Positions 721-19,835 of a DNA stretch of 64,000 nucleotides are shown piece after piece. Every line of letters begins with the position of its first letter. The stretch's first letter is position 1. This DNA comes from Turnera subulata (lineage: Eukaryota > Streptophyta > Magnoliopsida > Malpighiales > Passifloraceae). Location of the stretch: the NCBI GenBank assembly GCA_028386065.3, contig JAKUCV010000319.1, positions 102,088 to 166,087 on the forward strand. Reading direction: 5' to 3'. The position numbers were made by a program, and so were the translations under genes. The notes below the pieces were generated by a model. It ran no database searches, was not told the origin of the DNA, and saw nothing but the letters and a program-made list of their open reading frames with translations.

Positions 721-759
721 TCTTTACCTCTTCAAGGTAAACAGGGCAGTTGCGTTTCT

Positions 760-2156: not shown

Positions 2157-2711
2157 AACATCGATGTTGAACCCTTCAACATCGATGTTTGAAGTTTGCG
2201 AATCCACAAAACATCGATGTTGACACTCAAACATCGATGTTGGAGGTTGCCGAACCCTCAGAACATCGATGTTGACCATCAAACATCGATGTTGGAGGTT
2301 TGCGAGCCCTTAGAACATCGATGTTGACAATCAAACATCGATGTTTTAGTGCTTGAACTCCAAACTATTTGGCAGTAGCTCAAGAACATCGATGTTGAAC
2401 ACTTAAACATCGATGTTTTGAGTACTTGAAAGTTCAAGATTTGGCAGTAGCATTATAACATCGATGTTTAACATTTAAACATCGATGTTTAGGTTCTGGA
2501 ACTCAAGAACATCGATGTTGGGACTTAAACATCGATGTTGTTGGAGCTCTGGAACTCAAACCAATTTGGCCGAGCTCAAATAACATCGATGTTTAACACT
2601 TAAACATCGATGTTGTTGAGTGTTTGCATGAAAACATCGATGTTGGTCACACAACATCGATGTTGTGGAGATTCGCCCAAGGCCAATCTTCATGTGACCA
2701 ACATCGATGTT
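2157..2711. repeat. Phased palindrome array 1 (19 perfect AACATCGATGTT)
   Basis: Nineteen mismatch-free copies of the palindrome AACATCGATGTT start at 2157, 2178, 2210, 2230, 2262, 2282, 2314, 2334, 2385, 2406, 2457, 2478, 2508, 2528, 2582, 2603, 2633, 2653 and 2700. They form nine pairs with a start-to-start step of 20 or 21 bp plus one single. Pair-to-pair steps are 51-53 or 67-74 bp. Spacers inside pairs are 8-9 bp, loosely GA-rich then TCA/TTA. Spacers between pairs are only partly similar. The array lies in the copia-1 leader, about 455-1010 bases downstream of the LTR. Confidence 0.95.
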
Positions 2712-3152
2712 ATGGCCTAAACTTGCTTGAACGACAATCGTTCGATACACAAACCGGCACTCGGTTTTTCTGAGTTGAACCCTTCGACCTACTGCCATAA
2801 ACATCTTGATTGATATCTCATACCAATCAAGTGCTTGTTGTCAAAACACTTTTGACAAAACAACCTTAACAACATATATATCACATATATATAACTGAAT
2901 ACAATATGACATGATCATGCTCTATCACATAAAACATATCATGTATATTTACTCAAAAACATATCAAACATATGCATATAATTGGATGGCAAATCACATA
3001 TACCAAAACAAAGTCAGCATATCATTTGATAATACACAAACACATCATGTTCAAAACCATTTAGCATATCTCATACACAAAACGATTCCTACACATGCTA
3101 AGATGATCATATCTCATATGCATCATTTATACGGTTTAGAGCTTCACAAGAA
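2712..3152 (-). other. copia-1 leader, LTR-proximal part
   Basis: AT-rich, non-coding. Many ATAT and ACATATCA runs are present, but no gene or structured repeat beyond short TA-rich stretches (2874-2890). Confidence 0.5.
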
Positions 3153-3166
3153 GGCTCCGCTACCAC
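3153..3166 (-). other. copia-1 primer-binding site
   Basis: The minus strand immediately inside the LTR reads GTGGTAGCGGAGCC. The SIRE-type element has the same motif directly inside its own 5' LTR (18494-18508). Position and sequence fit a tRNA primer site of the initiator-Met-like TGGTA..GAGC type. Confidence 0.7.
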
Positions 3167-4692
3167 TGTAAGTTTCCGTAATCTACATGACACTTCATAT
3201 AGAACATAAAATGCACAGCGGAAGTACGGAAACTAACCAAGAACCAAGTGAAGCATGCATAAACCGTATAACAAAATTTACATACCTGGAAGATTAGGGT
3301 CTTTCACCTAACTCGTGTATGGAATCAGTGAGAGCAAGACAACGGCCTGGCTCCTCTATGGTATCCACACGAACCGTGACCTTCCCGGAATCGTCACACG
3401 AATCCAAGAACGAGCTCCCCGGACTGATGTGTTAGCAAGAGTAAACCGGGGCTGTGTGTTTTGGGTGTTTTGGTTCTTCTTCTTTCTTTCACAAAGAGGA
3501 TGGAGAAGAGAAGAGGAGGTGTGTTTTGAGCTCTGCAAAATGTGGTGAAAGAGGGGAGGGAGAGGAGTGATCAGATTACACACCAAAAAATCCCAACACA
3601 CTCAACCATTATGCTTAGAATAAGCACTAATGGCCAACACTAGGCCCCAAAGGTAATGACCATCATTACCTTGTCTCCACTAATGGACAATATGATAACA
3701 CACTACCAAAGCACTAATGTCTGGTCAATTATTCAGCTAATAATTATGCCAAAACCGACCCTGGTTCAACCACGGTTCAACCACGGTCCAACCACACCCG
3801 GTCCAACCATGGTCCAACCACGGTTCAACCAACTGCTCGAACCAACGGTTCTATGTGTGTGACCCTGTAGGCACTTGTAACATCCGGCAATAATTATAAA
3901 ATCTCATTTTACAATTATAGGCAAAGAGCGGCGTCTAGCAACACATCATTGCTACCCGAACGACAAGATCAATACTGATTCTCTATGCCTCGAAACATGT
4001 CATCGTCCCTTCGTCCCATTATCAGATTAAACCGAGACATGGAATATGTCAATCTCGTATATGTTTAATCTCGGTTTCTTGATCCTCGAGTTAACTGTGT
4101 AAAACGGATACCAATGATATCACCATATCATAATCCGAGCACGACCGTGCATTTACAGTTCGACTCTATCAAGAAACCATCAGATAATATACCCGTTATA
4201 TAGGTCGGACGAATCCCCTCTTGACTCATCAAAACCCACTACATAATCATCATATACCCAATGATTACCCTTATGTCCACCCAGTTACGGATGACTAGGA
4301 ATAATATCAAAGTACATGACTCATATGTTGGGAACCTTGATGATCTCAGGTCGGAGGACAATTACATCTATAAGAACCACTAATGACATACATATAACGT
4401 TCCATGTAGGGTTCTTATGTGGGTCGGTCCAGTCCACAAGTTCTCCAACTTGTACCCGTATGTAGAATTCATATCACACATGCAATTCTCAATATACGCT
4501 AGTCTTAATTTATTATTACAACCCATCCGTAATAATAATCGACTAGGGACATTTAAGAATATGAAATATTCTAGGGTTATAAGTATGTGCAAGCGTTTAT
4601 CTCATAAACAATACTTATTGGAATAACCTTAATGTGTATACATGACTACAAATAATCATCCATGATTGGCTTTTGGGCATATTACACTAACA
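3167..4692 (-). repeat. copia-1 5' LTR
   Basis: 1526 bp, bounded by TG at 3167 and CA at 4692 on the plus strand (minus strand TGTTAGTGTAATATGCCC ... CTTACA). The homologous solo LTR 42738-44250 (1513 bp) aligns in opposite orientation, which confirms both ends. Inside, 3763-3831 holds six copies of an 11-bp GGTYCAACC motif, also present in the solo LTR. Confidence 0.9.
3763..3831. repeat. GGTYCAACC short tandem repeat in LTR
   Basis: Six copies of GGTTCAACC or GGTCCAACC, mostly at an 11-bp step. The related solo LTR keeps the same type of cluster at 43602-43671 although the individual bases differ. Confidence 0.7.
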
Positions 4693-5798
4693 CTGACATC
4701 TCCATGGACTTTATTGATGGATTGCCCAAGTCTTGCAGTAAGACAGTGTTGTTCGTTGTTGTTGATCGGTTTTTCAAGTATGCACATTTTCTTCCCCTTG
4801 CACATCCATATAGTGCTGCCAGAGTTGCTCAAGTCTTTTTTGAGCATATTGTTCGATTGCATGGCATTCCAGAAACCATCACTTGTGATAGGGATGTGGT
4901 GTTTACAAGCAACTTTTGGCGAGAGTTGTTTCGTCTGAATGGCACAAAGCTGCAATTTTCTACTGCCTATCACCCCCAAACAGACGGTCAAACAGAGGTG
5001 GTCAACCAAACAGTGGAAATGTATCTGCGTTGCTTTGTTGGCGACTTCCCTACCTAATGGGTGTCATGGGTTGCATGGGCTGAATATTGTTATAACACCT
5101 CCTTTCACACTGCCCTCAAAACCACACCCTTTCGGGTACTGTATGGTCGTGACCCTCCTCGCTTATTATCTTATGTGGCAGGTTCAACTCGGGTAGAAGC
5201 AGTAGATTCTACCTTGCTGGATCGTGATGTTGCCCTGCATGATATCCGGGGTCGCCTCCTCACTGCTCAACAGAAAATGAAGGAGTCCTATGATCGTGGT
5301 CACCGTGATGTTGCATTTGACCCTGGCCAACTTGTATGGCTTCGCTTGAAACACTCCCGCCCACAGACTATGGGTACCATGCGGTGCAAGCTGTCCCCAA
5401 AATACTGTGGCCCCTTTCCTATCGTTCAGCGCATTGGTACAGTGGCTTATGAGCTGAAGCTTCCACCTGACACTAAGCTGCACAATGTGTTCCATGTTTC
5501 TTTGTTGAAAGAATACCGAGGTGAGCCACCCTTGACAGCACCTATGTTGCCCCCAACTAATGATGGCAGAGCAGTTCTTACCCCTGCTGTGATCCTCCGC
5601 ACTCGCCTCAATCGTGGCAATTATGACTTGTTGGTCCAGTGGCAGGGTCAATCAGATGCAGACGCAACCTGGGAAGACATGGCAAATTTCCAGCAAACCT
5701 ACCCAGATTTCGAGCTTGAGGACAAGCTCTTTCCCCAGGACGGGGGAGATGTTATGGACGCTTCCATAGGCAGGAATTATGCTAGGCGTCCACACTGA
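4693..5798 (+). pseudogene. Ty3/gypsy chromovirus integrase with chromodomain (truncated)
   Basis: Integrase core and C-terminus of a plus-strand chromovirus, Reina-like by its C-terminal motif. The core starts at DISMDFIDGLPKS (first catalytic Asp), continues with FVVVDRFFKYAHF (second Asp) and PQTDGQTEVVNQ (catalytic Glu). A GPF..V..IG..AY segment follows, then HNVFHVSLLK and a chromodomain-like tail LLVQWQGQSDADATWEDM. A TAA stop at 5055-5057 splits the frame, consistent with one C-to-T change in a Gln codon. Everything upstream of 4693 was displaced by the copia-1 insertion. The stop of the frame at 5796-5798 lies inside the 3' LTR. Confidence 0.85.
5741..5749 (+). other. Polypurine tract of the chromovirus
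   Basis: CGGGGGAGA directly before TGTTATGG, the expected plus-strand priming site ahead of a 3' LTR. Confidence 0.6.
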
Positions 5799-6190
5799 TT
5801 CAGGTCATCAATTTCATCCACAATTCAAGGACACTGATTCAGCAATCACAATGTTATCATTGATTCTTGGCAATCATCATTATCCTTCTTTCCTTAGTTA
5901 TCCTGAAGTCAACTTTATATTTCCTATTAGACAACAAGCTGGTCCACTAAAGATCTGCTATTATCCCTTTGATTATGTCTTTTAATGCTTTCCAATTAGA
6001 CTATGATTCTATCTTTAATATTTGCTATTAGAGTAAGGATGTACTTCTATTCCTGTACTACTCAAAGTCCTATTTAAAGGATCCTACTATGAATAAAGAA
6101 ATCAAGTCATATTCAGCAAACACCTAGAGGTCAGAGCTCCCTTTAACGAGTTCAGGTTCAGACTCCCTTCAAGAGTCTAGTTCACCATCA
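5750..6190 (+). repeat. Chromovirus 3' LTR (right end approximate)
   Basis: Starts TGTTATGGACG after the polypurine tract. It holds a TATTTAAA box near 6071 and AATAAA near 6093, spaced as in short Reina LTRs. The end is placed at CCATCA near 6190 by TG..CA logic only; no second LTR is available to confirm it. Confidence 0.5.
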
Positions 6191-6869
6191 TAGGTCGGGG
6201 GAAGGGCAAGGTCAAAAGTCCAGGCCAAGGCCCGAGGACTCGATCCCAGAAGTGTGGTGCTAACAGAGAGACTGTGGGTAATTGGCACCAACACCGAGCT
6301 TCACCTCTAAGTGGACGTCTGACAGGGGGTAGATGGAAGCTTAGGGAACTATCAATAAGATCGAAAGCCGTTGGTAGTACATTAGGTTGGGAGCCCCTTC
6401 GAGACATCTTATTAAACACAGGGCCTCACACAGGTCCAGCCTGTGAAGGTGCTGTTGAGCAATTTAGAGCATAAAGGCAAGACATGTGAATCCCTGGATA
6501 CCTAAGATTTCATCAATCCTGATCCCTACCCACTTCAAAATTACTATTACTTTTTATTCTCTTGCTTAATTTAATTTCGATTTGCACTCACCCCATAATC
6601 CATTTTTGTTTAATTGTCTCGAGCCTAATTCGTCTAAAGTAAGGAGTAACAGACTCAATCCAGTCCCTGTGGATACGACCTTGATAGTACTACAACAATC
6701 TTGTGCACTTGCAGGACTCACAGCACACATCAATTGTGCCAAATGTTACATTCTCAAGATCATAGGTATCGAAATAGCAGAGCACCTGTGAGGACTCTAG
6801 TATTATACAGTATAATAGATATTAGATATATTTGTATATATATTAATGTTCACGTGATGATAATGCCCC
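6191..6869 (+). mobile_element. Gypsy leader/LTR scraps
   Basis: No coding sequence is supportable. The 6540-6790 stretch contains CCTGTGGATACGACCTTGATAGTACTACAACAATCTTGTGCACTTGCAGG-type sequence, the hallmark 3' end of OTA-type gypsy LTRs, here in plus orientation. 6191-6540 looks like retroelement non-coding DNA but I cannot place it. Confidence 0.4.
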
Positions 6870-7403
6870 ACTACTTCTTTTTTTCTTTTTTTTGATAAAC
6901 AGAGGTAGATTCCTTCATAGATCTGAAAGTGTTACATAGAAATACATCAACACATCGAACAAGAGAAATATAAAAGCCTTAAAATCTATTACAAGATGTA
7001 AAGCCAGAAACTCTATAGTAGTAAAACCTACTGCGTGAATATAGAAATTGAGACTTAAACTATTTCTCAATGAAATAAGATCCAAAGGAATACAGGCATA
7101 CTGAAGCTCCACAAGTCCCAAACGGTTGTTCATCAAAGAGTTGATGAACGATGAGAGGAAAAAGGGGCGATCCTACAATAAAGAGATAAAAGCTTCTAGA
7201 TCCACTTAAAAAAAATGATTGTTGTAGCTTCTATGAATTATCATGAGTTGCCTAACAAAACTAATCTACCCAAAAAAACAAGAAAACAAAACGGTTGCAA
7301 GCCATTCTCTTCTTGGGAATTGTATATTAAATATATACATAAATGCAAAGGCATATATATATTTTAGATAAATAATATCAATTGTTATCCCGTTCCGGTA
7401 TAT
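6870..7403 (-). mobile_element. 5'-truncated LINE 3' end with poly(A)
   Basis: On the minus strand the segment ends GTTTATC followed by an A-rich tail of about 20 (plus-strand T-run 6877-6895), which is how plant L1 LINEs end. It has no readable reverse transcriptase. A possible imperfect target repeat, TGCCCCA, occurs on both sides (near 6864 and 7405). The extent is therefore an estimate. Confidence 0.45.
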
Positions 7404-7446
7404 GTGCCCCATCTGTGCTTTATTGAGATTGACGTGCCAAAACAGT

Positions 7447-7459
7447 TTTCTAGTAGTGG
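7447..7459 (-). other. CACTA-type terminal motif
   Basis: The minus strand reads CACTACTAGAAAA, the terminal inverted repeat motif of CACTA (En/Spm) elements. No partner end or 3-bp target duplication was found, so this may be a remnant or chance. Confidence 0.3.
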
Positions 7460-7972
7460 TGAATATAATATATATATTATATTACTCACAAATCATTTGC
7501 CTGTCTTCTTCGTTTAACGTGTCACAGTGCTGCAAAAATATTAATATCTTCCAATGACACGCGCTCCTCTTGATATTGCAGCTCGTGTGGTCCCCATCTC
7601 AAACTCAGTTGCAATTCTTCTTGAAGAATATATCCTCCTTGATCAATGTGCCAAATAGTTGGACTACAACATATATAAAAATAATTTGGAAGTGTTGGTT
7701 TGACTTGATCCTTCACATCACATATTTAATATCTTGTTAGATATTAATATACGAAGTGAAGGCACAGACACATTGTACTCCCTCGAACTGTCGCTTCGTT
7801 TCTTGGCCGCACGTGTCCTTGTTTTATTTGCTGTTTCATGAAGCACAAGTGAGGTAAAGAGGAATTTCACCCCAAACTTGTTGCTTTCTTTATTTGCTGA
7901 AAATTGGAAATAATCGTGAGTCGTCTCCCACGCAACACTTCTTTAACATCATGTAGCTGGACTTGAAGCTCG
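7460..7972 (-). other. Gypsy 3' non-coding region
   Basis: Follows the integrase stop on the minus strand. It includes a GCGTGGGAGACGACTCACG-like stretch typical of the post-integrase region of OTA gypsy elements. No gene is visible. The expected 3' LTR (plus-strand start TGTAAGTATACAGGG, as at 20041) is not found here, so the element is truncated at this end. Confidence 0.45.
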
Positions 7973-8202
7973 TCATACAGAAGGCATGTCTGCGAACGGT
8001 AGCACTACCTCTTGTTCGATAGGCTCTTCGGGAATGTACAACTTGAGACGTCTTCCATTCATTGTGAAAGTACCGTCGTCTTTGCTCTGAATTTCAACGG
8101 CGCCAGACTGGTAAACTCTGATTACCTCAAAAGGTCCCGACCATCGTGACCGAAGCTTTCAACGGAAAAGCTTGAGTTTGGAGTTGAATAGTAGGACATG
8201 GC
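7973..8202 (-). pseudogene. Gypsy integrase C-terminal fragment
   Basis: The minus strand reads HVLLFNSKLKLF, then KLRSRWSGPFEVI and MNGRRLKLYIPEE, ending at a TGA at 7973-7975. This is the conserved integrase end of Athila/Tat elements, which would help bind DNA during integration. It is joined without gap to gag sequence at about 8199-8206, so the catalytic core is missing. The joined ORF at 8122-8577 reads integrase DNA in the wrong frame after the junction. Fragment only, no function expected. Confidence 0.8.
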
Positions 8203-8595
8203 CTTTGCCTTGTTTTTTAGTGAAAAAGGAAAAAGGCGCAGTTTGATAGCATCTTCGGAGGCTCCATTTACTTTAATGGTTTCCAGGAAATCTTGTAGAT
8301 GCTGATTTGAGTCTTCAGTGGAGGAGCCCCTAAAAGGATCTTGCTGGACCATCTTGATATGGGTCGGCTTTAGCTCAAAGTTATTTGCTTGCACAGCTGG
8401 CCGAACCACATTGGACTGTGCAAGAGTCGAGTCAGGGATAGAGAAATCCCCGGACTGGTCTATGCCGAGGTCCGTATTGGACTCCCTCAATCTCCTCGAC
8501 GATGAGCCCATTATGTTCTGCCATTTTTTCTTCGGACGTAGTGTCATCTTCCGATTTCTTCTCAAGCTTTTGCTCACGGATACGCCTCCAAAAAG
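8203..8595 (-). pseudogene. Gypsy gag, 3' part before the deletion
   Basis: Continuation of the gag started at 19893. First readable as WRRIREQKLEKK and MAEHNGLIVEEIE, then after a frameshift as STLAQSNVVRPAVQANNFELKP, IKMVQQDPFRG, LRLFPFSLKNKAKA. These are the signature N-terminal gag strings of Athila/Tat elements. It stops at the deletion junction near 8203. The right edge (8591-8595, AAAAG) is the target-site copy of the SIRE insertion. Confidence 0.8.
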
Positions 8596-9133
8596 TGTTA
8601 GAATAGGTTCCCTACGCTAGAGGGGGGTGAATAGCATTTTATGGACAAAATCAAGAATTTTCAGGAAATAATTGCGGAATTGAAAGAATGAAGGATACAC
8701 CAAATTTTATACTCGTTCACACACACAACTTGTGTGGCTAATCCAGTCCTCCGAGAGACTCTCTCAGAGATTTAACTATCTAAGTTAAGCTTCCGGGTGC
8801 TTAACAAATCGTTTACAGACCTAGAGCTCGAGTCACACGAAACTCTCCTTACTTGTTTGAAGGTACCACACTTCAAGACTTTCCTAACAGAAAGAAAGAA
8901 CCTCTCCCTATGAATTACAGCACGGAAACTAACCTCCCAAAATAATGAATGGCAACTGAATATAACACTCAAAGCAGAAACTCTCTCAAGAGTGGTTATT
9001 GAGCAACAATGTAAGCACTATAAGGCAACTCTTAAATTCCAAAGGTATTAGCTCATAAAAGTGCATGAATGTTTTTCAATGTATGCTTGAATGTATGAAG
9101 AGTTGATGTTTTGAAAGAGAGGTTTAAAGCCTC

Positions 9134-9141
9134 TATTTATA
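9134..9141 (-). promoter_or_regulatory. TATA box of SIRE 3' LTR
   Basis: Minus-strand CTATAAATAGAGGC. The equivalent box in the 5' LTR is 19048-19055. In both LTRs the nearest palindrome lies 97 bp upstream. Confidence 0.7.
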
Positions 9142-9237
9142 GCTTCAAAAACTCATATGGTCGTTGGGGACAAGTTCTAAAACCTTTTAGACAAGATAGC
9201 ATGCTTGGTGGAAAAAGTTGTTTAATTCCAATGGCAC

Positions 9238-9643
9238 AACATCGATGTTGGGGTCACAACATCGATGTTTGTCCGTTGGATTTGAATAATTGAGCCAACG
9301 GCTACTAAAACATCGATGTTTGTTTGATAAACATCGATGTTTTCATAGACAACATCGATGTTCACAAACCCAACATCGATGTTTTGGTGCTTCGCAAAAA
9401 AATATGATGAAGTTGATTTTTTAAGAACACTGATGTTGGAGGAGGCAACATCGATGTTTAAATGCTGCGGCAAAACCATTTTGAAAACAAATATCATAAC
9501 ATCGATGTTGTGTAAGCCAACATCGATGTTGTGGACGCAACATCGACGTTTTGGACACAACATCGATGTTCTTGAGCCACGACAATTGTTTGATTTGTTT
9601 GAAGGTAAATAACGTCGATGTTTGGACAGGGAACATCGATGTT
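9238..9643. repeat. Phased palindrome array 2 (3' LTR U3)
   Basis: Perfect AACATCGATGTT at 9238, 9258, 9309, 9330, 9351, 9372, 9447, 9498, 9519, 9559 and 9632; one- or two-base variants at 9426, 9539 and 9611. Steps are 20-21 bp within groups and 51-54 bp between groups (9258 to 9309, 9372 to 9426, 9447 to 9498, 9559 to 9611). The sequences between groups are unrelated to one another. Confidence 0.95.
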
Positions 9644-9936
9644 TAGGACTCAAAAATCAATTTTATGACTGAAAGCATGCTATGAAATGCATGAGTAAAT
9701 TTTGTTTTGTTTTGAGCTAATAACATGAAAGTTTTGAGTTACCATTTACAAGGAGTTCCTATAGATAGTTCCTATAATTCTTCATCCTTGTTGCTTCAAT
9801 CCTTGTGCTCCTTTCTCTTTAGACTTTTGCTTCTTTGATTGGTTTCTTTTTGCTTCAAGGTTGTCATCAATTGAGCTATGGTTGGTTTGTCATTATCAAT
9901 ACCCTGAAATGAGACAATGAAGCATGAGTTCTAACA

Positions 9937-9952
9937 ATTTCCCCCTTTTTGA
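9937..9952 (-). other. SIRE polypurine tract
   Basis: The minus strand reads AAAAAGGGGGAAAT just before the 3' LTR. A second AAAAGGGGGAA tract occurs at about 10088-10098, flanking a 24-bp duplicated segment (CCCTAACTTGGTGCATA at about 10014 and 10054). Confidence 0.8.
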
Positions 9953-10194
9953 TAATGACAAACATATAGAAGTATATGCCAAGTTTTATGAATTTATAAG
10001 TGAGGTTGATTCCCCCTAACTTGGTGCATATGTTAATTTCATATGTTAATTCTCCCTAACTTGGTGCATATACTTCTTCTTATCATCTTCCCCCTTTTGT
10101 CATTAGCAAAAAGAATTGGCAATAAGTAGCATTTTATTGAATTGGAAAAATAAATATAAAGATAGCAAGAAAATAAAAGTTTAGAAAATGGGGT
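9953..10194 (-). other. SIRE 3' non-coding region
   Basis: Between the env-position ORF stop and the polypurine tract. Contains the duplicated 24-bp segment and the second purine tract, no ORF. Confidence 0.6.
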
Positions 10195-11478
10195 CTAGGT
10201 CCCATTATTATCATCATCATGGTCATCATCAGTTGCTTCATTATCACCATCATCTTCTTCTTCTTCATCATCCTCTTCCATAGGTGTGTAGTCCTCATCA
10301 TCATTATCATCTTCAGCATCAAAATGGAGGTCTTGAAATGATGTGTGATACGGTGGAGGAGCGTAATTGACATGAGCAAAATATGACCGAAGATCATGTC
10401 CTTGTCGTTGCACTTCTGTGTCAATCCGCTCAATGGATCGTCCCAGGCCATGGACATATGATTGAAGATGGTGGAGAGAGGCAGCAATTGTTTCAAGGGT
10501 GACGACAGGAGCTTGGTCAGGAGCTGGAAGTGCAAGAAGACGCGCTGCTTGAGGTTCATCTGCTTGTTGTGCAGCTGCCTGTTGTTCGGCTTCTTGGGCA
10601 GGTCGGTGAGCACCCTCAGCTGCTTGTCGAGCTCGGAAGGTTGCATCAGAAATTGCCCATAACTTGACTTCTGTGGTTAGAATTCCTACCAGCGGATTGA
10701 TACCTGCACTCATCAAAATGTTGGTGACCAAGAAAGCATAGGGCAGAGGATGGTCGTTGGTCGCATGTTCCGCCATGTGCCTGAGCACGAATCGTGCCCA
10801 ATTAATGGGTGCACCGTGAAGGATCGCGTGAATAACTTTCTCATCTTCAGTGGTCAGAGTTGTGTGACTCCCGGCTCTTGGTTTGATCACCCGAGTGACA
10901 AGATAGAAAAGGACCCTGTACTCCGGATTGATTGAGTGAATTGTGGGTCGACCGGAACGATTTTTCTTCACCTCCGTGAAGCCAAGCTCAACAAGAAGAG
11001 GGATTTCATAGTTAGTGAGAAAATGATCACCCCCATAGCCAGAGATGTCGTGACCTTGGAATGGCAATTTGGCAATGGTCCCGAACTGCTCCAAGGTGAT
11101 CTGAATAGTCTTCCCATTTACTTGTGCAGATAGGACATCTCCTTCTCGGGTGAGACTTGAGTAGAAGGCTCGGATGAAATCGACATTAAACTCATGCCTC
11201 GTATGGGTAACAAACTCCCAAAGGTGAGACTCTTGAAGAAGTCTTGGAAGATTTGTGTATTGTTTTTCTTGAGGGTAGTCTTCGGGGAGGTACCGTGGTG
11301 GTGCAATGGATCGTTTGGCGAAAAAGGATAGGTAATGGTTGAGTTGATTCCGGGAAGTGAACCAAATGTTTGAACCCTCCACGAAATATTGACGGACAGA
11401 GCTTGAGGAGCTTCTTCTTTTGGATGGGTGCTCTTGCAAAGGGTCTTTTCCTTTGGAACTTTTCTTTCCACCAACCAT
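10195..11478 (-). CDS. Env-position ORF with plant-transposon-protein domain
   Basis: Open frame of about 427 aa. The ATG at 11476-11478 (MVGGKKSSKGKD) is the first true ATG; the frame extends upstream only through non-ATG codons. Order: basic Ser/Lys-rich N-terminus (to about residue 32), a globular region of about 230 residues (VEGSNIWFTS..., HLWEFVTHTRHEFNVDFIRAFYSSL..., ITLEQFGTIAKLPF..., HAILHGAPINWARFVLRHMAEHA), an Ala/Gln-rich linker (about 250-300), then a very acidic Asp/Glu tail. The globular part resembles the putative plant transposon protein family (PF20167 type, from memory). No signal peptide or membrane segment, so it is not a classical envelope protein. It has no stop, unlike gag-pol of the same element. 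Function unknown; a nucleic-acid or chromatin role would be a guess. Confidence 0.8.
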   Translation of the reverse strand: MVGGKKSSKGKDPLQEHPSKRRSSSSSVRQYFVEGSNIWFTSRNQLNHYLSFFAKRSIAPPRYLPEDYPQEKQYTNLPRLLQESHLWEFVTHTRHEFNVDFIRAFYSSLTREGDVLSAQVNGKTIQITLEQFGTIAKLPFQGHDISGYGGDHFLTNYEIPLLVELGFTEVKKNRSGRPTIHSINPEYRVLFYLVTRVIKPRAGSHTTLTTEDEKVIHAILHGAPINWARFVLRHMAEHATNDHPLPYAFLVTNILMSAGINPLVGILTTEVKLWAISDATFRARQAAEGAHRPAQEAEQQAAAQQADEPQAARLLALPAPDQAPVVTLETIAASLHHLQSYVHGLGRSIERIDTEVQRQGHDLRSYFAHVNYAPPPYHTSFQDLHFDAEDDNDDEDYTPMEEDDEEEEDDGDNEATDDDHDDDNNGT

Positions 11479-11538
11479 GATTAAAGAATAGGAAACTTGT
11501 GAGCAGAGGAGTAGGTGGAGATGAGAAGAGGAGATGAG

Positions 11539-11547
11539 TATATATAT
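11539..11547 (-). promoter_or_regulatory. Internal TATA box for env-position ORF
   Basis: The minus strand reads TATATATA at 11547-11539, followed by a CT-rich stretch (CTCATCTCCTCTTCTCATC) and the ATG 61 bp after the box. Spacing fits a plant core promoter with a 5' UTR of about 30 bases. Palindrome array 3 begins 67 bp upstream. Confidence 0.6.
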
Positions 11548-11613
11548 GGAGGGGTTCAAAAAGTAGCCGTTAGAGGCCTCAAACGGCTATTTTTTTTTTA
11601 AAAACAACGGCAG

Positions 11614-12057
11614 AACATCGATGTTCTGACCCAAAACATCGATGTTGAGATGGCTCAACGGCTATATTTTTTTGAACTGCAACGGTACAACATCGATGTT
11701 TTAGAGGGAACATCGATGTTTTATGCACTCGGCCGAAAAAAGAGAAAACATGCCCGCGATGCAACATCTACTCAAACATCGATGTTTTTTGCGTTCGACC
11801 GAATTGATTTTCATCAAAATGGTCAAACATCGATGTTGGTACTCAAAACATCGATGTTTTGGACCTTCAGAAATTTAGAGAAATTAAGTGAAATAGTGCA
11901 AATATCGATGTTGGATGACTAAACATCGATGTTGTAGTGAGAGTTTTGAAGACTTACCTGAACATCGATGTTGTGATACGCAACATTGACGTTTTGAACA
12001 TTCGGTCAATTGTGAATTGCATCCAACATCGATGTTATGTTGGGCAACATCGATGTT
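11614..12057. repeat. Phased palindrome array 3 (upstream of env-position ORF)
   Basis: Perfect AACATCGATGTT at 11614, 11635, 11689, 11709, 11775, 11826, 11847, 11922, 11961, 12025 and 12046; variants at 11901 and 11982. Steps are mostly 20-21 bp inside pairs and 51-54 bp between, with three exceptions (66, 39 and 43). Confidence 0.95.
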
Positions 12058-12816
12058 GGCTCTGTTTTGCTTAGTTAAGTCCTTTTGTTCATCCTCGCTT
12101 GTGATCCGAATTGAGGTGTACCTGCAAAACAGAGTTAGTAGAGCCTCGGGTGCTCGAGTTAGCAAAGATAATACACGAGCTTTAGTAAGATAAAACCATG
12201 TGTGACAATTTTAAGGGTAGTAAGAAAGCCTCTGCCCCCAAGAAATATTTTCTTGGATTTCTATCCTGCCAGGATGAGGAGGTGTCTCCTTGTCGTAAGT
12301 ACATCGGGCTCGAGAAAATGTCTTGTCAGTTGGACTTTGGTTGCCTTTGATGCCCAGCTAATCAGACAGTAAATCCCGTGATGAATCAATAATGTAATTA
12401 AAACCACGATTGTCAAAAAAAAATCTTTGATAATCGGAAAAATTTGTAGGGTTGCAGACATTGATTGAGCAATAATTTAACTAATTGACAAGTTTTTCAA
12501 AGAGAAGATTCTTGAAAATTGAAGCAGTTTGGAGGGGCCTTCTGCTGAACATTTTTCAAAGATGGGTAGGGGTCACCTCCTAAACAATCTCGGGACATTT
12601 CAGAAATTGGTAGGGGTCACCTTCTGAGAGAAGAAGCAATATAGTTGTGTTTCTATAAATAGGCAGACGATAGAGCTCATTAGACACAGAAAATTATAAG
12701 CTAATTTCTGAAAGAGAGTTAGTAAAAAAAATCAAAAGCAAGAATGCCTTCCCCTTCCACTGTCTTTTTTTGTTGAGGGTGCAGCCTTAGGCAGGAGAAA
12801 CTGATTAGCCCATAGT
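12058..12816 (+). other. SIRE internal spacer with plus-strand promoter-like segment
   Basis: No gene on the minus strand. On the plus strand CTATAAATAGG at 12652-12662 is followed by a leader-like A-rich stretch and then the LINE ORF. It may be the promoter or 5' UTR that came with the LINE-derived segment; the segment's left boundary is not defined. Confidence 0.4.
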
Positions 12817-13428
12817 ATGGTGAGTGAGCCGTCTGAGGAGCTGCCTAATGAGCTAGGTAGAATCCCTCGCTTAGTATTTGTTGATGAGCTTTACTCTTCT
12901 AGGTTTTTTGTCACACCCATGAAAGAGTCAATTTTTCTTGAGAGTCAAAGCCCACTTAGAACATCCTTCTATGGTACCGCCAATGCCACCATGTTCTTCA
13001 TATCTAAAAGGCTTGAAAGTTTTCAAATGGAGTCTACCCATCAAACCTTAGAACAAGGAAGTTACTATCGTCTTTCAATGACTGCTCAGAGTGCTTCACA
13101 GGCCCCTGTCTTACCACCAACGTGGCCAAAGGTTCGCCTGCTAGTGTGGAATTGCAGGGGAATCACTAGGCGCTCTGAAGACTTTGCAAGAACCTTGAGA
13201 GACCCAAAGAACCAATACAAGCCGAACATGGTTCTGCTCACTGAGACATTATGGCAACCTGGCGAAAACCACGGGGTCATCCCTCTCCGTTTTCCATCAG
13301 TGAACCGGTTTGAAATCTCTGGCCAAAATAACTCGGGTGGAATGTGGTTTGCATGGAATGATAGTGTGAGGGTTAATATAGTCAATGACTCTAATAGCTT
13401 CTCTGTAACTGCTGTACCAAATCGTTAG
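12817..13428 (+). CDS. LINE endonuclease-domain fragment, antisense inside SIRE
   Basis: 203-codon plus-strand ORF starting at a true ATG. The first 95 or so residues are unrecognised. From about residue 105 it reads VRLLVWNCRGITRR (endonuclease/exonuclease/phosphatase motif with catalytic Asn), then NMVLLTET (catalytic Glu), NNSGGMWFAWND. This is the N-terminus of L1-type LINE ORF2. The frame ends after NR, well before the Asp and His motifs and the reverse transcriptase, and no poly(A) tail or target duplication was found. It lies opposite to the SIRE genes, between pol and the env-position ORF, so it is a truncated or captured piece. Confidence 0.75.
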   Translation: MVSEPSEELPNELGRIPRLVFVDELYSSRFFVTPMKESIFLESQSPLRTSFYGTANATMFFISKRLESFQMESTHQTLEQGSYYRLSMTAQSASQAPVLPPTWPKVRLLVWNCRGITRRSEDFARTLRDPKNQYKPNMVLLTETLWQPGENHGVIPLRFPSVNRFEISGQNNSGGMWFAWNDSVRVNIVNDSNSFSVTAVPNR

Positions 13429-13634
13429 GAGCTAGATTATGATAGGTATGTATGTTTAAAAATATGTGTGATTGTAATGTAATATAAATAATGTAAGTGT
13501 GTGTGTGTGTTTGTAAGCGTGATTGTAATGAAATATTATGAAATGGTGTGAGCGTGTGTGTGTGATTGTAATGAAGAAATTCAGGTTTTATGATCTTTGT
13601 ATGTGTGATAATTATGATGAAAGAATGCATGAAT
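13429..13634 (-). repeat. TG-rich imperfect tandem repeat downstream of pol
   Basis: Three rough copies of a GTGTGTGTGATTGTAATGAAAT-like unit between the LINE fragment and the pol stop. No gene. Confidence 0.5.
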
Positions 13635-16600
13635 TTAGATTATTGTAGAGTCAAGAATGCCAAGTTCAGTACGAATGCGAAAGAATGACTCTTGCTCCAA
13701 AGGTTTTGTAAAAATGTCTGCTAATTGAAATTTTGTGTCCACAAATTCAATAGCTATGTCTCCCTTGAGAACATGATCTCTAATAAAAGGATGTCTAATG
13801 TCAATATGTTTAGTCCTTGAGTGTAAGATTGGATTTTTAGTTAGACTTATGGCACTAGTATTGTCACACCCAAGAGGAATGTGATTAATGTTAAGACCAT
13901 AATCCTCTAATTGTTGTTTCATCCAAATGATTTGAGCACAACAACTACCAGCTGCAATGTGTTCTGCCTCGGTGGTGGATAATGCTACACTAGCTTGTTT
14001 CTTACTAAACCAAGAAACTAAGGAGCTGCCAAGTAAGTGACAAGTTCCACTAGTACTCTTACGATCTAGTTTGCATCCTGCAAAGTCTGAGTCGGAATAG
14101 CCCATGAGTTGAAGTGTAGAACCTTTAGGATACCATAGTCCAACATTAATTGTGCCTATTAGGTATTTCAGAATTCTTTTAATTGCCTTAAGATGAGACT
14201 CTTTAGGGCATGCTTGATACCTAGCACATAAATAAACGCTAAACATAATGTCCGGCCTACTTGCAGTTAAGTAGAGAAGGGATCCGATCATACCTCGATA
14301 TTTTTTGACCTCAACTTCCTTACCTTTCTCATCCTTGTCTAGATGTACAGAAGTGCTCTTGGGTGTGGCCATTTCCTTTGATCCGTCTATTTTAAAGCGC
14401 TTAAGCAATTCCTTGCAATACTTTGATTGTGAGATGAATGTGCCTTCCTTCATTTGTTTGACTTGCAGTCCCAAAAAGAAAGTCAATTCACCCATCATGG
14501 ACATCTCAAATTCGCTGGTCATCATAGCAGAGAATTCCTTGCACAAGGATATGTTAGTAGCACCGAAAATGATGTCATCTACATAAATTTGTACTAAGAG
14601 GATGTCATTGTTTTTACTTTTAATAAAGAGTGTAGTATCCACCTTCCCCCTTTTGAACCCATTGTCCAAAAGACCATAGAGTGCTTTCTTAAGTTTGAAG
14701 ACATGATCAGGAAATGCATGATCTTCAAAGCCTCGGGGTTGATTAACATACACTTCTTCTTGAATGAAGCCATTTAGAAATGCACTTTTAACATCCATTT
14801 GATACAGCTTAAAGTCCATTGACGATGCAAATGCAAGCAATAAGCGAATGACTTCTAATCGTGCAACCGGTGCATATGTTTCTTCAAAATCGATTCCCTC
14901 TTCTTGATTATAACCTTTTGCTACTAACCTAGCTTTATTTCTAGTTATTATGCCATTTTCATCTAATTTATTTCTAAACACCCATTTCGTGCCAATTATT
15001 ATATGATCAATAGGCCTTGGAACCAATTTCCAAACATCATTACGTTTGAATTGGTTTAGCTCTTCTTGCATAGCCAAGGTCCAATGTTCATCATTAATTG
15101 CTTCAGAAATGGTTGTTGGCTCAATTTGTGAAACAAATGCCATGTGACTTACAGTATCTCTAAGGGAATTACGAGTACTTACACCGCGGTTGATATCACC
15201 AATTACCGTTTCAAGAGGATGGTCTTTCGATTCTCGCCATCCTCTAGGGAGTTCTTGGTTGACATCAACCGTTGTTTCTTCCGCGTTTGAGCTGTCTTTG
15301 GGTGAGTGACTTGGCTATTCTTCTTCTTTGTCGCCCAAGGATATCTTCTCAAGTGTACCTACAAGATCATCACAAAAGTCCTTTCTCGCCAAGCGAGTAT
15401 CATTTTCTGCAAACACAACATGAGGGGATTCTTCAACATTTAAAGTGCGTTTATTGAAGACTCTATATGCTTTGCTGCGCAATGAATAACCGAGAAAGAA
15501 GCCTTCATCAGACTTTGCATCGAATTTTCCCAAACTGTCTTTCCCATTATTATGAACAAAACATTTGCATCCAAATACTCGTAAATGAGAAATGTTAGGC
15601 TTTCTTCCCTTGTATAATTCATAGGGCGTTTTCATGAGTATTGGCCTAATGATTGCTCGGTTTAACGCATAGCTAGCCGTACTCACTGCATCAGCCCAGA
15701 AATACTTAGGAATTTTAGCATCATTGAGCATTGTTCTTGCCATTTCCTCAAGACACCGATTCTTGCGTTCAACAACGCCATTCTGTTGTGGTGTCCGAGG
15801 GGCTGAGAAATCATGCTCAATGCCATGTTTATCACAAAAAGTTGAAAATTGATTGTTTTCGAATTCACCTCCATGATCACTTCTAATGCAAGCAATTGAA
15901 CAATCTTTTTCATTTTAAACTTTCTTAAGAAAGCTCTTGAAAACATTAAATACTTCACTTTTATGTGTAAGAAACAAGGTCCAAGTGTATCTTGTGTAAT
16001 CATCAACAATTACAAAGACATAATAGTTACCTCCAAAGCTTTTGGTTTGTGAGGGACCAAAGAGATCCATGTGCAAAAGTTGAAGCGGTCTAGATGTTGA
16101 GACAACGTTCTTGGAATTGAACGAAGCTCTCACTTGCTTCCCCTTTTGACATGCATCACATATAGAATCCTTCTCAAATTTAATCTTTGGAATACCAACC
16201 ACTAAGTCTTGAGTCACCAATTTGTTTAACATCTTCATATTAACGTGAGCTATTCTACGATGCCATAACCACATATCATCTTCTTTGCTCATTAGACATT
16301 TTGAAAACTCTGATGAAGACTCTTCCAAGTTAACCATATAAATGTTGTCAATTCTATCACCATGTAGAATGATCTTATTATCACTAAGACGTTCTACAGT
16401 GCATGACTTGGAATCAAAAATCACACGATTTCCCTTGTCACATAATTGACTTATGCTCAAGAGATTGTGTTTAAGACCTTTAACAAGTAAAACATTATCA
16501 ATGGAGGAAGATTCATTTTTACCAACCGAGCCAATGCCGATGATCTTTCCTTTGTTGTTGTCTCCAAAGACAACGTTTCCTCCATTTGATGGCTTAATTT

Positions 16601-16690
16601 GTAGGAACTTGGATGCTTCTCCGGTCATGTGCTTGGAGCATCCGCTATCAAGGTACCAAAGTACACTTGATGCCTTCAAGCATACCTACA
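13635..16690 (-). pseudogene. SIRE protease, integrase, RT and RNase H (pol)
   Basis: One pol frame broken by stops at 15915-15917 and 15315-15317. Protease: LDSGCSKHMTG near 16650. Integrase: zinc motif (WHRRIAHV ... CDACQKGK), LLHMDLFGP and VIVDDYTRY (two Asp), NGVVERKNR (Glu, between the stops). [22 protein letters not shown] (motif A Asp) and VQIYVDDI (catalytic YVDD). RNase [43 protein letters not shown]. At about 14674 the segment between KKALYGL and DNGFKRGK is shorter than in other copia RTs by roughly 16 residues (in-frame deletion of the KQAPRAWY region). Both stops fit C-to-T changes in Gln codons. The frame differs from gag by a frameshift near 16690. Confidence 0.92.
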
Positions 16691-18453
16691 AAAGCAAATC
16701 AATGAGATTTTGGTACCCAAATCTTCTTGGGTCCTTGAGTGTTAGGAGCATAGCGGTAATGAGCTTCTTCTTGCGCCCAATGCCTATGCCTAGTAAAGCA
16801 AACGGGAGCAATATGTCCTATTCTATTGCAATAATGACAAATGACATTTGGATTGTGCATCCTTCTAGGTTGATAATAGTTACTATATTGCCTATGTTTG
16901 TGCATTTTACTAACCTTGTTTTCCTTAGGTTAAACCGTAGGTTTCCTAGGCTTAGTCTCAATTTTCTTCTTTTTAGACTCATTTTTGAATCCTACTCCAT
17001 GTTTGGTTGATTGCAAATTACCTAAGAGAGAATTCAAGTTCTTTTGAGGGGTGTTAAATTTCTTTAGTGTTGTTTCAAGTTCATTAACTTGTTCTTTTAA
17101 TGTCTCACAAGATGAACACTCCCTAGTTTTTGTTTCAAGTTCTCCAATTTGTTCCTTTAGTGATTTGCATGATGCACATTCCTTAATTGGACTTTCTGGT
17201 TTATTAGCACTGCTCTTTCCGCAAAACTTATTCTCCTCTTTAAGCTTTTCATTTTCACTTGACACTTTCTCCATATCATTCTCTAGAGTTTCAAGTTGTT
17301 TCTTTAAGCCCTTATTAGCTCTAGATGCCGAAATATATTTATCATAAAGCTCATTAAATGCATCTTGCAATTCTTCAAAAGTATAATCTTCGCTTGGGTG
17401 AGAAGTAATTACCTCTTCCGGTTCTTCCTCTCGTGCCATGAGACATAGGTTGGCCGTTTCTTCTTCATCACTATCGGATGATTCATCGCCGGAATCGCCT
17501 CCCCAAGAGATGTATGCCCTTTGCTTCTTGTAGGGCTTCTTTTCTTTTCCCCCCTTTGCCTTGGGGCACTTAGGCTTGATGTGCCCAACCTTTCCACATC
17601 CATAGCACTTGGGTGGACCGGACGTCTTCCTTCCTTTCCTTTCAAATTCTTTCTTCATGAATTTATGTATTTTACGGGTGACAAGTCCGAGTTCTTGATC
17701 GTCATCACTAGAGTCCGATTCAGTGAGCTCTTGCGTCTTGGAGGTGGAAGCTTTGAGAGCTACGTTCTTCTTCTTTGGTTCCTGCAAAGAGGGTTTAAGA
17801 ATAGTAGTTTCATAGGTTAGAAGATTACCTCTAAGAAGGTCAATGGTTGTGTTCGATGTCCCAATGTTTTCATAGATTGCGTCGGCTTTAGAACGCCATT
17901 CGGGAGTGAGGCATCTAAGGACTTTTCTGACCAAGTCCTTGTCGGAGTAGACTTTCTTGAGAGCATGAAGGTTGTTTACGATTTTAGAAAATCGTTCTAA
18001 CATCTCCTCTATTCCCTCGTTCTCCTTCATTCAAAAGAGTTCGTAATCTACAGTGAGGGAGTCGATTTCGGCCTCTCGGACTTGATCGGTTCCTTCGTAG
18101 GTGACCTCCAGCTTATCCCACATTTCTTTTGCGGTTGTGCAGCAAGAGATTTTCCGGTAATCTTCTGGGTTTACTGCACAATAGAGCATGCTGATTGATT
18201 TGGCGTTGTTTTCAACTATCGTAATTTCTGCAGCGTTATACTCCTCCTCCGTCTTTGGCACTGTGATTTCACCAACTTTCTTCGTCGGAATTTTCTCTCC
18301 AATCTTCATGATTCGCCAAAGAGCATAATTGTTGGATTGGAGGAAAATTCTCATCCTCTCCTTCCAGTAGCTGTAATTAGTGCCATCAAAGACCGGTGGA
18401 AGAGTGGTTGATTGCCCTTCGAAGAGTCCTGCATAATTACTTGAAGAAGCCAT
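16691..18453 (-). pseudogene. SIRE gag (broken)
   Basis: ATG at 18451-18453 (MASSSNYAGLFEGQ). N-terminal retrotransposon gag domain (YSYWKERMRIFLQS, EMWDKLEVTYEGT), interrupted by TGA at 18031-18033 (fits CGA to TGA). It continues with KVLRCLTPEWRSKADAI, a CCHC knuckle CYGCGKVGHIKPKC, an acidic stretch, then a coiled coil with two tandem CASCKSLKEQIGELE-like units. A second stop at 16930-16932 precedes a second knuckle CHYCNRIGHIAPVC. The long coiled coil and two knuckles are typical of SIRE/Maximus gag. It would form particles and package RNA but cannot be made whole here. Confidence 0.9.
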
Positions 18454-18493
18454 GGAAAGTTTCTCTCAAACGGTTAAGTCTTTCAGAGAGTTA

Positions 18494-18508
18494 GGCTCCG
18501 CTACCAAT
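18494..18508 (-). other. SIRE primer-binding site
   Basis: The minus strand directly after the 5' LTR reads ATTGGTAGCGGAGCC, near-identical to the copia-1 site. Confidence 0.75.
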
Positions 18509-19047
18509 TGCTAGAATAGGTACCCTACGCTAGCGGGGGGGTGAATAGCATTTTATGGACAAAATCAAGAATTTTCAGGAAATAATTGCGGAATTGAAAG
18601 AATGAAGGATACACCAAATTTTATACTGGTTCACACACACAACTTGTGTGGCTAATCTAGTCCTCAGAGAGACTCTCTCAGAGATTTAACTATCTAAGTT
18701 AAGCTTCCGGGTGCTTAACAAACCGTTTACAGACCTAGAGCTCGAGTTACACGAAACTCTCCTTACTTGCTTGAAGGTACCACACTTCAAGACTTTCCTC
18801 ACAGAAAGAAAGAACCTCTCCCTATGAATTACGGCATGGGAACTAACCTCCCAAAATAATGAATGGCAACTGAATATAACACTCAAAGCAGAAACTCTCT
18901 CAAGAGTGGTTGTTGAGCAACAATGTAAGCACTATAAGGCAACTCTTAAATTCCAAAGGTATTAGCTCATAAAAGTGTATGAATGTTTTTCAATGTATGC
19001 TTGAATGTATGAAGAGTTGATGTTTTGAAAGAGAGGTTTAAAGCCTC

Positions 19048-19055
19048 TATTTATA
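19048..19055 (-). promoter_or_regulatory. TATA box of SIRE 5' LTR
   Basis: Minus-strand TATAAATAGAGG; presumed start of genomic RNA about 30 bp downstream. Confidence 0.7.
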
Positions 19056-19151
19056 TCTTCAAAAACTCATATGGTCGTTGGGGACAAGTTCTGAAACTTT
19101 TTAGACAAGATAGCATGCTTGGTGGAAAAAGTTGTTTGATTCCAACGGCAC

Positions 19152-19537
19152 AACATCGATGTTGGGGGTCACAACATTGATGTTTGTCCGTTGGATTTGA
19201 ATAATTGAGCCAACGGCTACTAAAAAAATCGATGTTTGTTTGATAAACATCGATGTTTTCATAGACAACATCGATGTTCACAAACCCAACATCGATGTTT
19301 TGGTGCTTCGCAAAAAATATGATGAAGTTGATTTGTTAAGAACATCGATGTTGGAGGAGGCAACATCGATGTTTAAATGCTGCGGCAAAACCATTTTGAA
19401 AACAAATATCACAACATCGATGTTGTGGACACAACATTGATGTTTTGGACACAACATCGATGTTCTTGAGCCACGGCAATTGTTTGATTTGTTTGAAGGC
19501 AAATAACATCGATGTTTGGACAGGGAACATCGATGTT
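19152..19537. repeat. Phased palindrome array 4 (5' LTR U3)
   Basis: Perfect AACATCGATGTT at 19152, 19246, 19267, 19288, 19341, 19362, 19413, 19453, 19505 and 19526; variants at 19173, 19225 and 19433. Steps: 21, 52, 21, 21, 21, 53, 21, 51, 20, 20, 52, 21. Confidence 0.95.
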
Positions 19538-19835
19538 TAGGACTCAAAAATTAGTTTTATGACTGAAAGCATGCTATGAAATGCATGAGTAAATTTTGTT
19601 TTGTTTTGAGCTAATAACTTGAAAGTTTTGAGTTACCATTTACAAGGAGTTCCTATAGATAGTTCCTATAATTCTTCATCCTTGTAGCTTCAATCCTTGT
19701 GCTCCTTTCTCTTTAGACTTTTGCTTCTTTGATTGGTTTCTTTTTGCTTCAAGGTTGTCATCAATTGAGCTATGGTTGGTTTGTCATTATCAAAACCCTG
19801 AAATGAGACAATGAAGCATGAGTTCTAACAAAAAA

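What the first reader, a model, noticed from the sequence alone, without database searches (positions are those of the whole stretch)
2157..19537. Helically phased array of a 12-bp palindrome in two copia elements
AACATCGATGTT occurs 51 times perfectly (about 0.004 expected by chance in 64 kb) in clusters 2157-2711, 9238-9643, 11614-12057 and 19152-19537, and nowhere else that I found. Start-to-start steps are 20-21 bp inside groups and almost always 51-54 or 71-74 bp between groups: near 2, 5 and 7 turns of 10.5 bp, so the sites face one side of the helix. The DNA between groups is not conserved while its length is. That is what a cooperative dimeric DNA-binding protein would select. I know of no description of this array.
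Basis: partly seen in the sequence, partly recalled or inferred. Interest (0 to 1): 0.93.

Follow-up and report, generated by a model that had tools for sequence, protein, structure and literature searches.

The report
Shared phased operator in plant retrotransposons
A 12-letter DNA palindrome occurs 76,101 times in this plant's genome; the arrays sampled contain it in pairs at a fixed distance, many of them inside several kinds of jumping gene, where it is likely a docking site for a protein that would switch those elements on.

Summary
The 51 exact AACATCGATGTT copies are real (0.01 expected). The window's own 519-Mb genome holds 76,101 exact copies; the reversed word 63. Spacing is strict: 29,517 exact pairs at 20-21 bp against 708 at 22-23; 20,231 at 51-54 against 150 at 46-49; 6,046 at 42-45. 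Over 24 array groups, 116 of 124 inter-pair steps lie within 2.6 bp of whole 10.5-bp turns; without the 51-55 peak, 38 of 46. Within four families site cores are 94-99.5% identical, spacers 60-70%, sequence outside the array 77-88%.

The second element is a Sirevirus-like Copia. Palindromic boxes upstream of the TATA box and of the ENV-position gene are a published Sirevirus feature (PMC2829016), so the kind is known. I found no description of helical spacing, of a second TTCGGC-like box 7 bp outside pairs, or of one palindrome shared by three unlike Copia groups, upstream or downstream of TATA. The binding protein is inferred.

The parts
2157..2711 (.). Array A: 19 exact palindromes in the 5' leader of a Copia element (sense = minus strand), between primer-binding site and gag; part of the spacing comes from 52- and 72-bp tandem units
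   Evidence: leader-like sequence beside arrays also in L010, L039, L046, L052, L055, L056
3163..4694 (-). LTR of element A (5' LTR in sense orientation); predicted TATA box with first base at 4202
   Evidence: a diverged partial copy lies at 42736-43680
1..1367 (-). Element A gag/pre-integrase region (cut off by the window edge, broken by stops), Copia type
   Evidence: gag_pre-integrs PF13976 E=1e-11, weak zinc knuckle below cut-off
18509..19830 (-). 5' LTR of element B (Sirevirus-like Copia)
   Evidence: 95.4% identical to 3' LTR; ends read
8596..9936 (-). 3' LTR of element B, poly-C run near its 3' end, TG...CA ends
19152..19537 (.). Array B, 5' LTR: 13 sites with up to 2 mismatches, 10 exact, upstream of TATA
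9238..9643 (.). Array B, 3' LTR: 14 sites with up to 2 mismatches, 11 exact
19049..19055 (-). Predicted TATA box (TATAAATA) of the 5' LTR, 97 bp from the nearest palindrome (same at 9141 in the 3' LTR)
11614..12057 (.). Array B, internal: 13 sites with up to 2 mismatches, 11 exact, directly upstream of the extra gene
11540..11546 (-). TATATAT box between the internal array and the extra gene: a predicted internal promoter
10195..11478 (-). Extra (ENV-position) gene, 427 aa, Pfam PF20167 Transposase_32
   Evidence: E=3.2e-15; relatives in Turnera subulata and Cuscuta campestris
9939..10095 (-). Three polypurine octamers AGGGGGAA in the linker (9939, 10010, 10088); the terminal one starts 10 bp before the LTR with AT/TG junction
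   Evidence: one more at 14644, inside pol
18495..18508 (-). Primer-binding junction ATTGG-TAGCGGAGC of element B
11728..11733 (+). Second box (CTCGGC) 7 bp outside a pair; others at 11794-11799, 12001-12006, 9466-9471, and on the other side in array A at 2249-2254 and 2569-2574
11605..11610 (+). CAACGG (CCGTTG read outward) 3 bp outside a TATA-proximal pair; same offset at 11680 and, as CCGTTG, at 9273; at other offsets at 11656 and 9296

Best explanation
These arrays are repeated 12-bp palindromic DNA boxes in the non-coding parts of Copia retrotransposons, likely bound in pairs on one face of the helix by a dimeric nuclear protein that would activate the elements' transcription. Shown: pairs at 20-21 bp, repeated at 3, 4 or 5 helical turns; sites conserved while spacers change; a second box 7 bp outside many pairs; in the window, arrays just upstream of predicted TATA boxes of element B (in the LTR and before the extra gene), but downstream of the predicted TATA box in element A and in a small Copia family.
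For: Number and specificity: 76,101 copies vs 63 for the reversed word. Strict spacing: 29,517 exact pairs at gap 8-9 vs 708 at gap 10-11; 20,231 at gap 39-42 vs 150 at gap 34-37; 6,046 at gap 30-33. Over 24 array groups 116 of 124 inter-pair steps are within 2.6 bp of whole turns, 38 of 46 without the main peak; in the first 17 groups the minor steps share the phase of the main peak (projection 0.59, reached by 0 of 20,000 random sets; 26 of 31 within 2.6 bp). All 44 sampled arrays have at least one 20-21 step. Conservation pattern. Mismatches in 213 sites fall mainly on the outermost base (40 of 69), giving RACATCGATGTY, a graded profile like a protein-binding site. The second box, learned from element B, is the best match at the same offset in 49 of 185 flanks of 15 other arrays; a simple pattern hits 36 times at offset 7, 10 times at offset 6 and at most 5 times at any other of 30 offsets, 295 flanks. 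Predicted TATA boxes next to the B arrays.
Against: No binding, expression or chromatin data. No factor named; no plant motif collection could be searched. In element A the array lies about 1.5 kb, and in the small Copia family about 180-440 bp, downstream of the predicted TATA box, so it is not in a classic upstream position there. Copies spread by transposition and tandem duplication, so genome counts are not independent events. In the window alone the phase evidence between pairs is modest (p=0.004; 0.03 after collapsing tandem copies). Some steps (46, 47, 50, 58, 59, 66) are out of phase. The second box is absent from 2 of 15 test arrays and not clear in the left flanks of B (p=0.09). After insertion sites are not protected: 7 of 156 aligned site bases differ between the two LTRs of B vs 30 of 1167 elsewhere. 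15 arbitrary windows had no copy.
Confidence: 0.6

Rival explanations
1. The array acts in RNA: two palindromes 8-9 nt apart fold into 12-bp hairpins that feed the small-RNA silencing pathway, or shape the element's RNA.
For: All 19 pairs folded are predicted hairpins (-8.7 to -21.6 kcal/mol). The placements found (U3, U5, leader, linker) would all be part of a full element transcript (inference). In maize, small RNAs map in excess to Sirevirus regions with palindrome clusters (Bousios et al. 2016, as reported in passages of PMC10760457).
Against: Hairpin energy is nearly flat for loops of 3-14 nt (-12.9 to -14.3 kcal/mol), while genome pairs fall 42-fold between gaps 8-9 and 10-11. Hairpins give no reason for 42-45 and 51-54 peaks with a trough at 46-49. 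No imperfect site pairs better with its actual neighbour than with the canonical sequence, i.e. no compensation (few sites, and several changes still allow G-U pairs).
Confidence: 0.13
2. An element-encoded binder: the PF20167 protein of the Sirevirus-like element recognises the array and protects it from silencing or activates it, like VANC proteins on VANDAL arrays; other families exploit it.
For: Arrays flank this gene and sit in the same element's LTRs. VANC21 binds a dense array of a short motif in non-coding DNA, and its targets evolve through tandem repeats (PMC5735166, sections 8 and 9 read). PF20167 similarity also occurs in a sunflower Athila extra ORF with a predicted nuclear signal (PMC11728184, passages).
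Against: No VANC domain: PF20167 is the only convincing match. Models were poor (mean pLDDT 43 and 52) and the second matched nothing (no PDB hit at E<=0.001). Whether A-type and small Copia copies meet the protein is unknown.
Confidence: 0.15
3. An insulator or nucleosome-setting array: pairs in a repeat of about 73 bp (7 turns, half a nucleosome) block or place chromatin rather than activate.
For: Unit lengths of 71-75 bp from 20-21 plus 51-54; placement downstream of TATA in element A and the small Copia family recalls the Su(Hw) array in the leader of Drosophila gypsy (recalled, not from a call).
Against: Arrays lie next to predicted TATA boxes in element B; 3- and 4-turn steps are also common.
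Confidence: 0.08
4. A plain tandem repeat without function, spread by transposition; spacing is inherited.
For: Array A spacers are tandem-related (mean z 2.9).
Against: Sites 94-99.5% identical vs spacers 60-70% within four families; the same spacing in groups whose flanks do not align and whose proteins are only 27-36% identical.
Confidence: 0.04

Closest known systems
Repeated motif (RM) boxes of Sireviruses (Bousios et al. 2010, PMC2829016)
   Same: Many copies of a palindrome in the LTR upstream of the TATA box and again upstream of the ENV-position gene; Tnd-1 of tobacco has ACAATCGATTGT, with the same ATCGAT core.
   Different: Most RMs have a CGG-CCG core, this one does not (a CGG-CCG-like second box sits beside it). 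The paper calls RMs Sirevirus-specific and absent from classic elements; here the palindrome is also in a Copia leader and in a small Copia family. In its main text 'phasing', 'periodic' and 'apart' do not occur; 'spacing' and 'helical' occur once each, the first seen in a reference title, the second's place not shown to me but matching a reference title seen. Figures and supplements were not seen.
VANC target arrays in VANDAL transposons (PMC5735166)
   Same: Dense arrays of a short motif in non-coding DNA of transposable elements, evolving through tandem repeats.
   Different: Motif is 9 bp, not palindromic, in one orientation; binder is known and element-encoded; nothing on helical spacing in the two sections read.
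[quoted passage not shown] 2016, seen only as cited in passages of PMC10760457)
   Same: Clusters of palindromes in the LTR regulatory region, with predicted secondary structure.
   Different: Motif CACCGGACNNNGTCCGGTG; reported there as a small-RNA target, not as a phased protein array.
Su(Hw) array in the leader of Drosophila gypsy (recalled, no call)
   Same: Array of about a dozen 12-bp-class sites in a retrotransposon leader.
   Different: Sites not perfect palindromes; other host, other protein; insulator.

Membership tests
Sirevirus (element B) | Multiple polypurine octamers AGGGGGAG before the 3' LTR, the last 10 bp upstream, AT/TG junction | tested here: met
   AGGGGGAA at 9939, 10010, 10088: the end variant that the paper reports for ToRTL1 and Tnd-1; the exact octamer AGGGGGAG is not there
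Sirevirus (element B) | 5' LTR junction CA/ATTGG + TATCAGAGC | tested here: met
   CA/ATTGG + TAGCGGAGC, 7 of 9 PBS bases. Not exclusive here: the small Copia has the same ATTGG + TAGCGGAG
Sirevirus (element B) | Poly-C integrase signal near the LTR 3' end | tested here: met
   CACCCCCC about 24-33 bp from the end in both LTRs
Sirevirus (element B) | Palindromic RM boxes upstream of TATA in the LTR and upstream of the ENV-position gene | tested here: met
Sirevirus (element B) | CGG-CCG core of the RM | tested here: not met
   Core is ATCGAT, as in the Tnd-1 exception; not a feature that all Sireviruses in the paper have. A degenerate CGG-CCG-like box lies beside the pairs
Sirevirus (element B) | Reverse-transcriptase phylogeny | not tested
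   RVT_2 present; no tree built
Sirevirus (element B) | ENV-like gene after pol | tested here: inconclusive
   A gene stands in that place, but it is PF20167, not shown to be an envelope
Sirevirus (element A) | Poly-C signal at the LTR 3' end | tested here: not met
   no poly-C in the last 65 bp
Sirevirus (element A) | CA/ATTGG (or AGTGG) junction | tested here: inconclusive
   CA/GTGG + TAGCGGAGC, one base short of the AGTGG variant of six elements in the paper. The 3' half of A is outside the window, so PPT and RT could not be tested
VANC-type anti-silencing system | Element-encoded protein with VANC domains (DUF1985, DUF287) | tested here: not met
   Pfam scan to E=10 lists PF20167 and two weak unrelated names
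VANC-type anti-silencing system | Protein binds the array and removes methylation | not testable with these tools
   needs bench or methylation data

The most novel reading that the evidence does not exclude
One palindrome has become a common operator for the genome's retrotransposons: unlike Copia families use the same two-box module (paired RACATCGATGTY, 20-21 bp, units at whole helical turns, TTCGGC-like box 7 bp outside), read by one trans factor, possibly encoded by the PF20167 gene whose own predicted promoter carries it, so that families are switched on together as a regulon.
Probability: 0.3. Interest if true: 0.88.

Novelty: new variant of a known kind. Interest (0 to 1): 0.72.

Why it matters
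Sirevirus palindromes were described in 2010 and called possibly regulatory, without experiment in that paper. Here the sequence gives a testable rule: two sites two turns apart, repeated every 3, 4 or 5 turns, with a second box at a set distance. That rule points to protein on DNA rather than to hairpin RNA, gives a probe for fishing out the factor, and suggests that unlike elements share one control signal.

Tried and rejected
Coding repeat: steps of 20 and 21 break any frame. RNA hairpin as sole cause: disfavoured on loop energies and lack of compensation. Array A as a fragment of element B's LTR: no alignment beyond the array itself. Structure of the PF20167 protein: two models, both too poor to use; fold search without a hit. 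Relatives in viral contigs: one contig with a single pair, not an array, taken as chance. Literature: the 12-mer is in 2 papers and ACATCGATGT in 28, none on plant transposons by the titles and abstract starts listed; searches for palindromes, leaders, enhancers or helical spacing in LTR elements listed nothing that fits besides PMC2829016. The library lacks most subscription journals.

Limits of sampling: loci L026-L037 are first-listed places of close pairs; L038-L057 are 20 of the places listed for the rare gap 10-11, so such pairs are enriched there. Arrays were counted only with four or more sites. Fifteen arbitrary windows (L011-L025, about 138 kb) held no exact copy. Eight of 32 sampled windows could not be assigned to a family, and one assignment (L040) rests on 63 bp. 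Genome counts are for exact copies, include non-neighbouring pairs (42 = 21+21), and the tool calls its counts of repeats lower bounds. The bins 36-39, 56-59, 18-19 and 71-74 were not counted: the genome tool was busy (36-39 was asked and never answered; the others were not asked). The pattern was shaped on part of the same data; one search is the cleaner test, though array A is in both.
Full report
What was checked. The window holds 51 exact AACATCGATGTT in four clusters, 0.01 expected. The clusters 9238-9643 and 19152-19537 are in the two LTRs of one element and are copies of each other (95.4% identical), so the window has three independent arrays: A (2157-2711), B-LTR and B-internal (11614-12057). 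With up to two mismatches they give 43 steps: 24 of 20-21, 10 of 51-54, 5 of 30-32, and 39, 43, 47, 66 (the decayed pair at 1931/1950 left out).

Anatomy of element B (sense = minus strand). 5' LTR 18509-19830, gag and pol with Copia domains, the PF20167 gene 10195-11478, 3' LTR 8596-9936. The terminal polypurine octamer starts 10 bp before the 3' LTR with the AT/TG junction; three octamers of the AGGGGGAA form are in the linker; the LTR ends carry a poly-C run; the primer junction is ATTGG-TAGCGGAGC. These are features that Bousios et al. give for Sireviruses (PMC2829016; seen: abstract, passages, and sections 6, 9-13 and the first part of 15). Reading on the minus strand, array, CAACGG/CCGTTG boxes, TATA and gene start follow one another before the PF20167 gene (TATATAT at 11546, ATG at 11478), and array, boxes and TATA do so in the LTR (TATAAATA at 19055 and 9141). 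The first is a predicted internal promoter; the paper says that an internal promoter for ENV had been hypothesised and that it could not conclusively identify one.

Anatomy of element A (sense = minus strand). LTR 3163-4694, primer site next to it, a leader of about 1.8 kb with the array, then a broken Copia gag and pre-integrase region. It lacks the poly-C signal; its junction (CA/GTGG) is one base short of a Sirevirus variant, so that test is inconclusive. I recall its integrase motifs as those of Tork/Angela-type Copia; no call tested the lineage. Its pre-integrase piece (71 aa) is 30% identical to the same region of B and 27% to that of the small Copia; the small Copia and B are 36% identical over 252 aa, so these are three unlike groups. 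The array seems a family trait: six other sampled loci have arrays beside leader-like sequence (L010, L039, L046, L052, L055, and L056 on 132 bp).

Genome-wide. 76,101 exact copies in 518.7 Mb, 63 of the reversed word. Exact pairs by gap: 8-9 bp 29,517; 10-11 bp 708; 30-33 bp 6,046; 34-37 bp 150; 39-42 bp 20,231 (reversed controls 15, 0, 5, 0, 5). Copies multiply by transposition, so these are not independent events. For that reason I grouped 44 arrays (4 of the window, 40 sampled elsewhere) by shared spacer words into 24 groups and took one per group: of 158 short steps 146 are 20 or 21; of 124 longer steps 116 are within 2.6 bp of whole turns of 10.5 bp, where about half is expected; without the 51-55 peak 38 of 46. 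With the first 17 groups the phase strength at 10.5 bp was 0.70, and none of 5,000 random sets reached the observed maximum over 10-11 bp; a single broad peak alone would raise this number, so the minor peaks matter: they agree in phase with the main peak. Periods from 10 to 11.5 fit about equally well. Groups of one family with diverged spacers are still relatives, which weakens independence. All 44 arrays have at least one 20-21 step.

Conservation. Aligning arrays within four families (7, 12, 5 and 4 members), site cores are 94.9, 94.0, 96.4 and 99.5% identical, spacers 70.4, 59.6, 69.1 and 67.2%, sequence outside the array 87.9, 77.2, 81.1 and 85.0%. Units can align out of register, which lowers the spacer figure, and the last family has only 200 core bases. 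In 213 sites of 17 groups, 155 are exact and 40 of 69 mismatches are at the outermost base, 10 at the central CpG, so the conserved core is ACATCGATGT.

Second box. The starts of the long spacers in element B are more alike than shuffles (information 9.6 bits vs 4.75, sd 0.85). A matrix learned on 12 such flanks of B picks the same offset in 9 of 20 flanks of array A (1.4 expected) and in 49 of 185 flanks of 15 other arrays (array A is among these). Left out one at a time, 5 of the 12 training flanks themselves give that offset; the left flanks of B do not show it clearly (p=0.09), and 2 of the 15 arrays show none. A pattern [TC][TA]C[GT]GC hits 36 times at 7 bp, 10 times at 6 bp and at most 5 times elsewhere in 295 flanks. 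CCGTTG, which I recall as a MYB-type core, is at 7 bp (13) or 3 bp (5) outside pairs and at most 2 times at other offsets.

Placement elsewhere. Among 32 sampled windows, flanks resemble the Sirevirus LTR (12), the region before the PF20167 gene (4, one of them weakly), the A leader (5), a small Copia LTR (3) or none of these (8). In the small Copia family (gag, integrase and related Pfam domains; arrays 4.84 kb apart) the array is about 180-440 bp downstream of the predicted TATA box and just before the primer site. So the array is not tied to one side of the start site.

How it likely works. Two palindromes two turns apart put two dimers on one face; units at 3, 4 or 5 turns keep the face. 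Cooperative binding would explain strict distance with free sequence. Activation of transcription is the most likely output because the Sirevirus-type placements lie next to predicted TATA boxes, but chromatin roles fit the downstream placements as well. The hairpin reading fits the small-RNA excess reported for maize but not the spacing. The self-encoded reading is untested; the protein could not be modelled.

Known or new. Palindromic arrays of this placement are known for Sireviruses, down to one with an ATCGAT core. The helical rule, the second box and the sharing by unlike Copia groups I did not find described (searches; PMC2829016 seen as stated, without figures and supplements). I file it as a new variant of a known kind.

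Noticed in passing
L009:38-757 (minus), between repeats in C8:42933-45553: A short LTR-like pair with arrays encloses an ORF with a DEK C-terminal domain (PF08766, E=2.4e-10): a possible gene capture in a non-autonomous element.
   Followed up: partly
window 5061-5798 (+): Remnant of a chromodomain Gypsy integrase (SH3_Tf2-1, integrase p58 C-terminal and a chromo match just under cut-off) close to element A's LTR.
   Followed up: no
window 61323-63917 (minus): Long open pieces that look by eye like a Gypsy-type pol near the right end of the window; not searched.
   Followed up: no
window 12817-13428 (+): A 203-aa ORF that looks by eye like the start of a non-LTR endonuclease lies on the opposite strand inside element B between pol and the internal array; no Pfam match.
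   Followed up: no
P0003 and other Cuscuta campestris proteins: PF20167 relatives in Cuscuta are often predicted joined to a Copia gag domain (gag first, PF20167 after it in P0003), perhaps gene-model fusions.
   Followed up: no
window 9263/19178, 9311/19227, 9430-9431/19345-19346, 9544/19438, 9547/19441, 9614/19508: The seven site differences between the two LTRs of B; two of them (19178, 19438) are C-to-T at the central CpG, as expected in methylated DNA.
   Followed up: partly
window 42736-43680 (+): A partial copy of element A's LTR (87.7% identical) without any palindrome array near it in the window.
   Followed up: no
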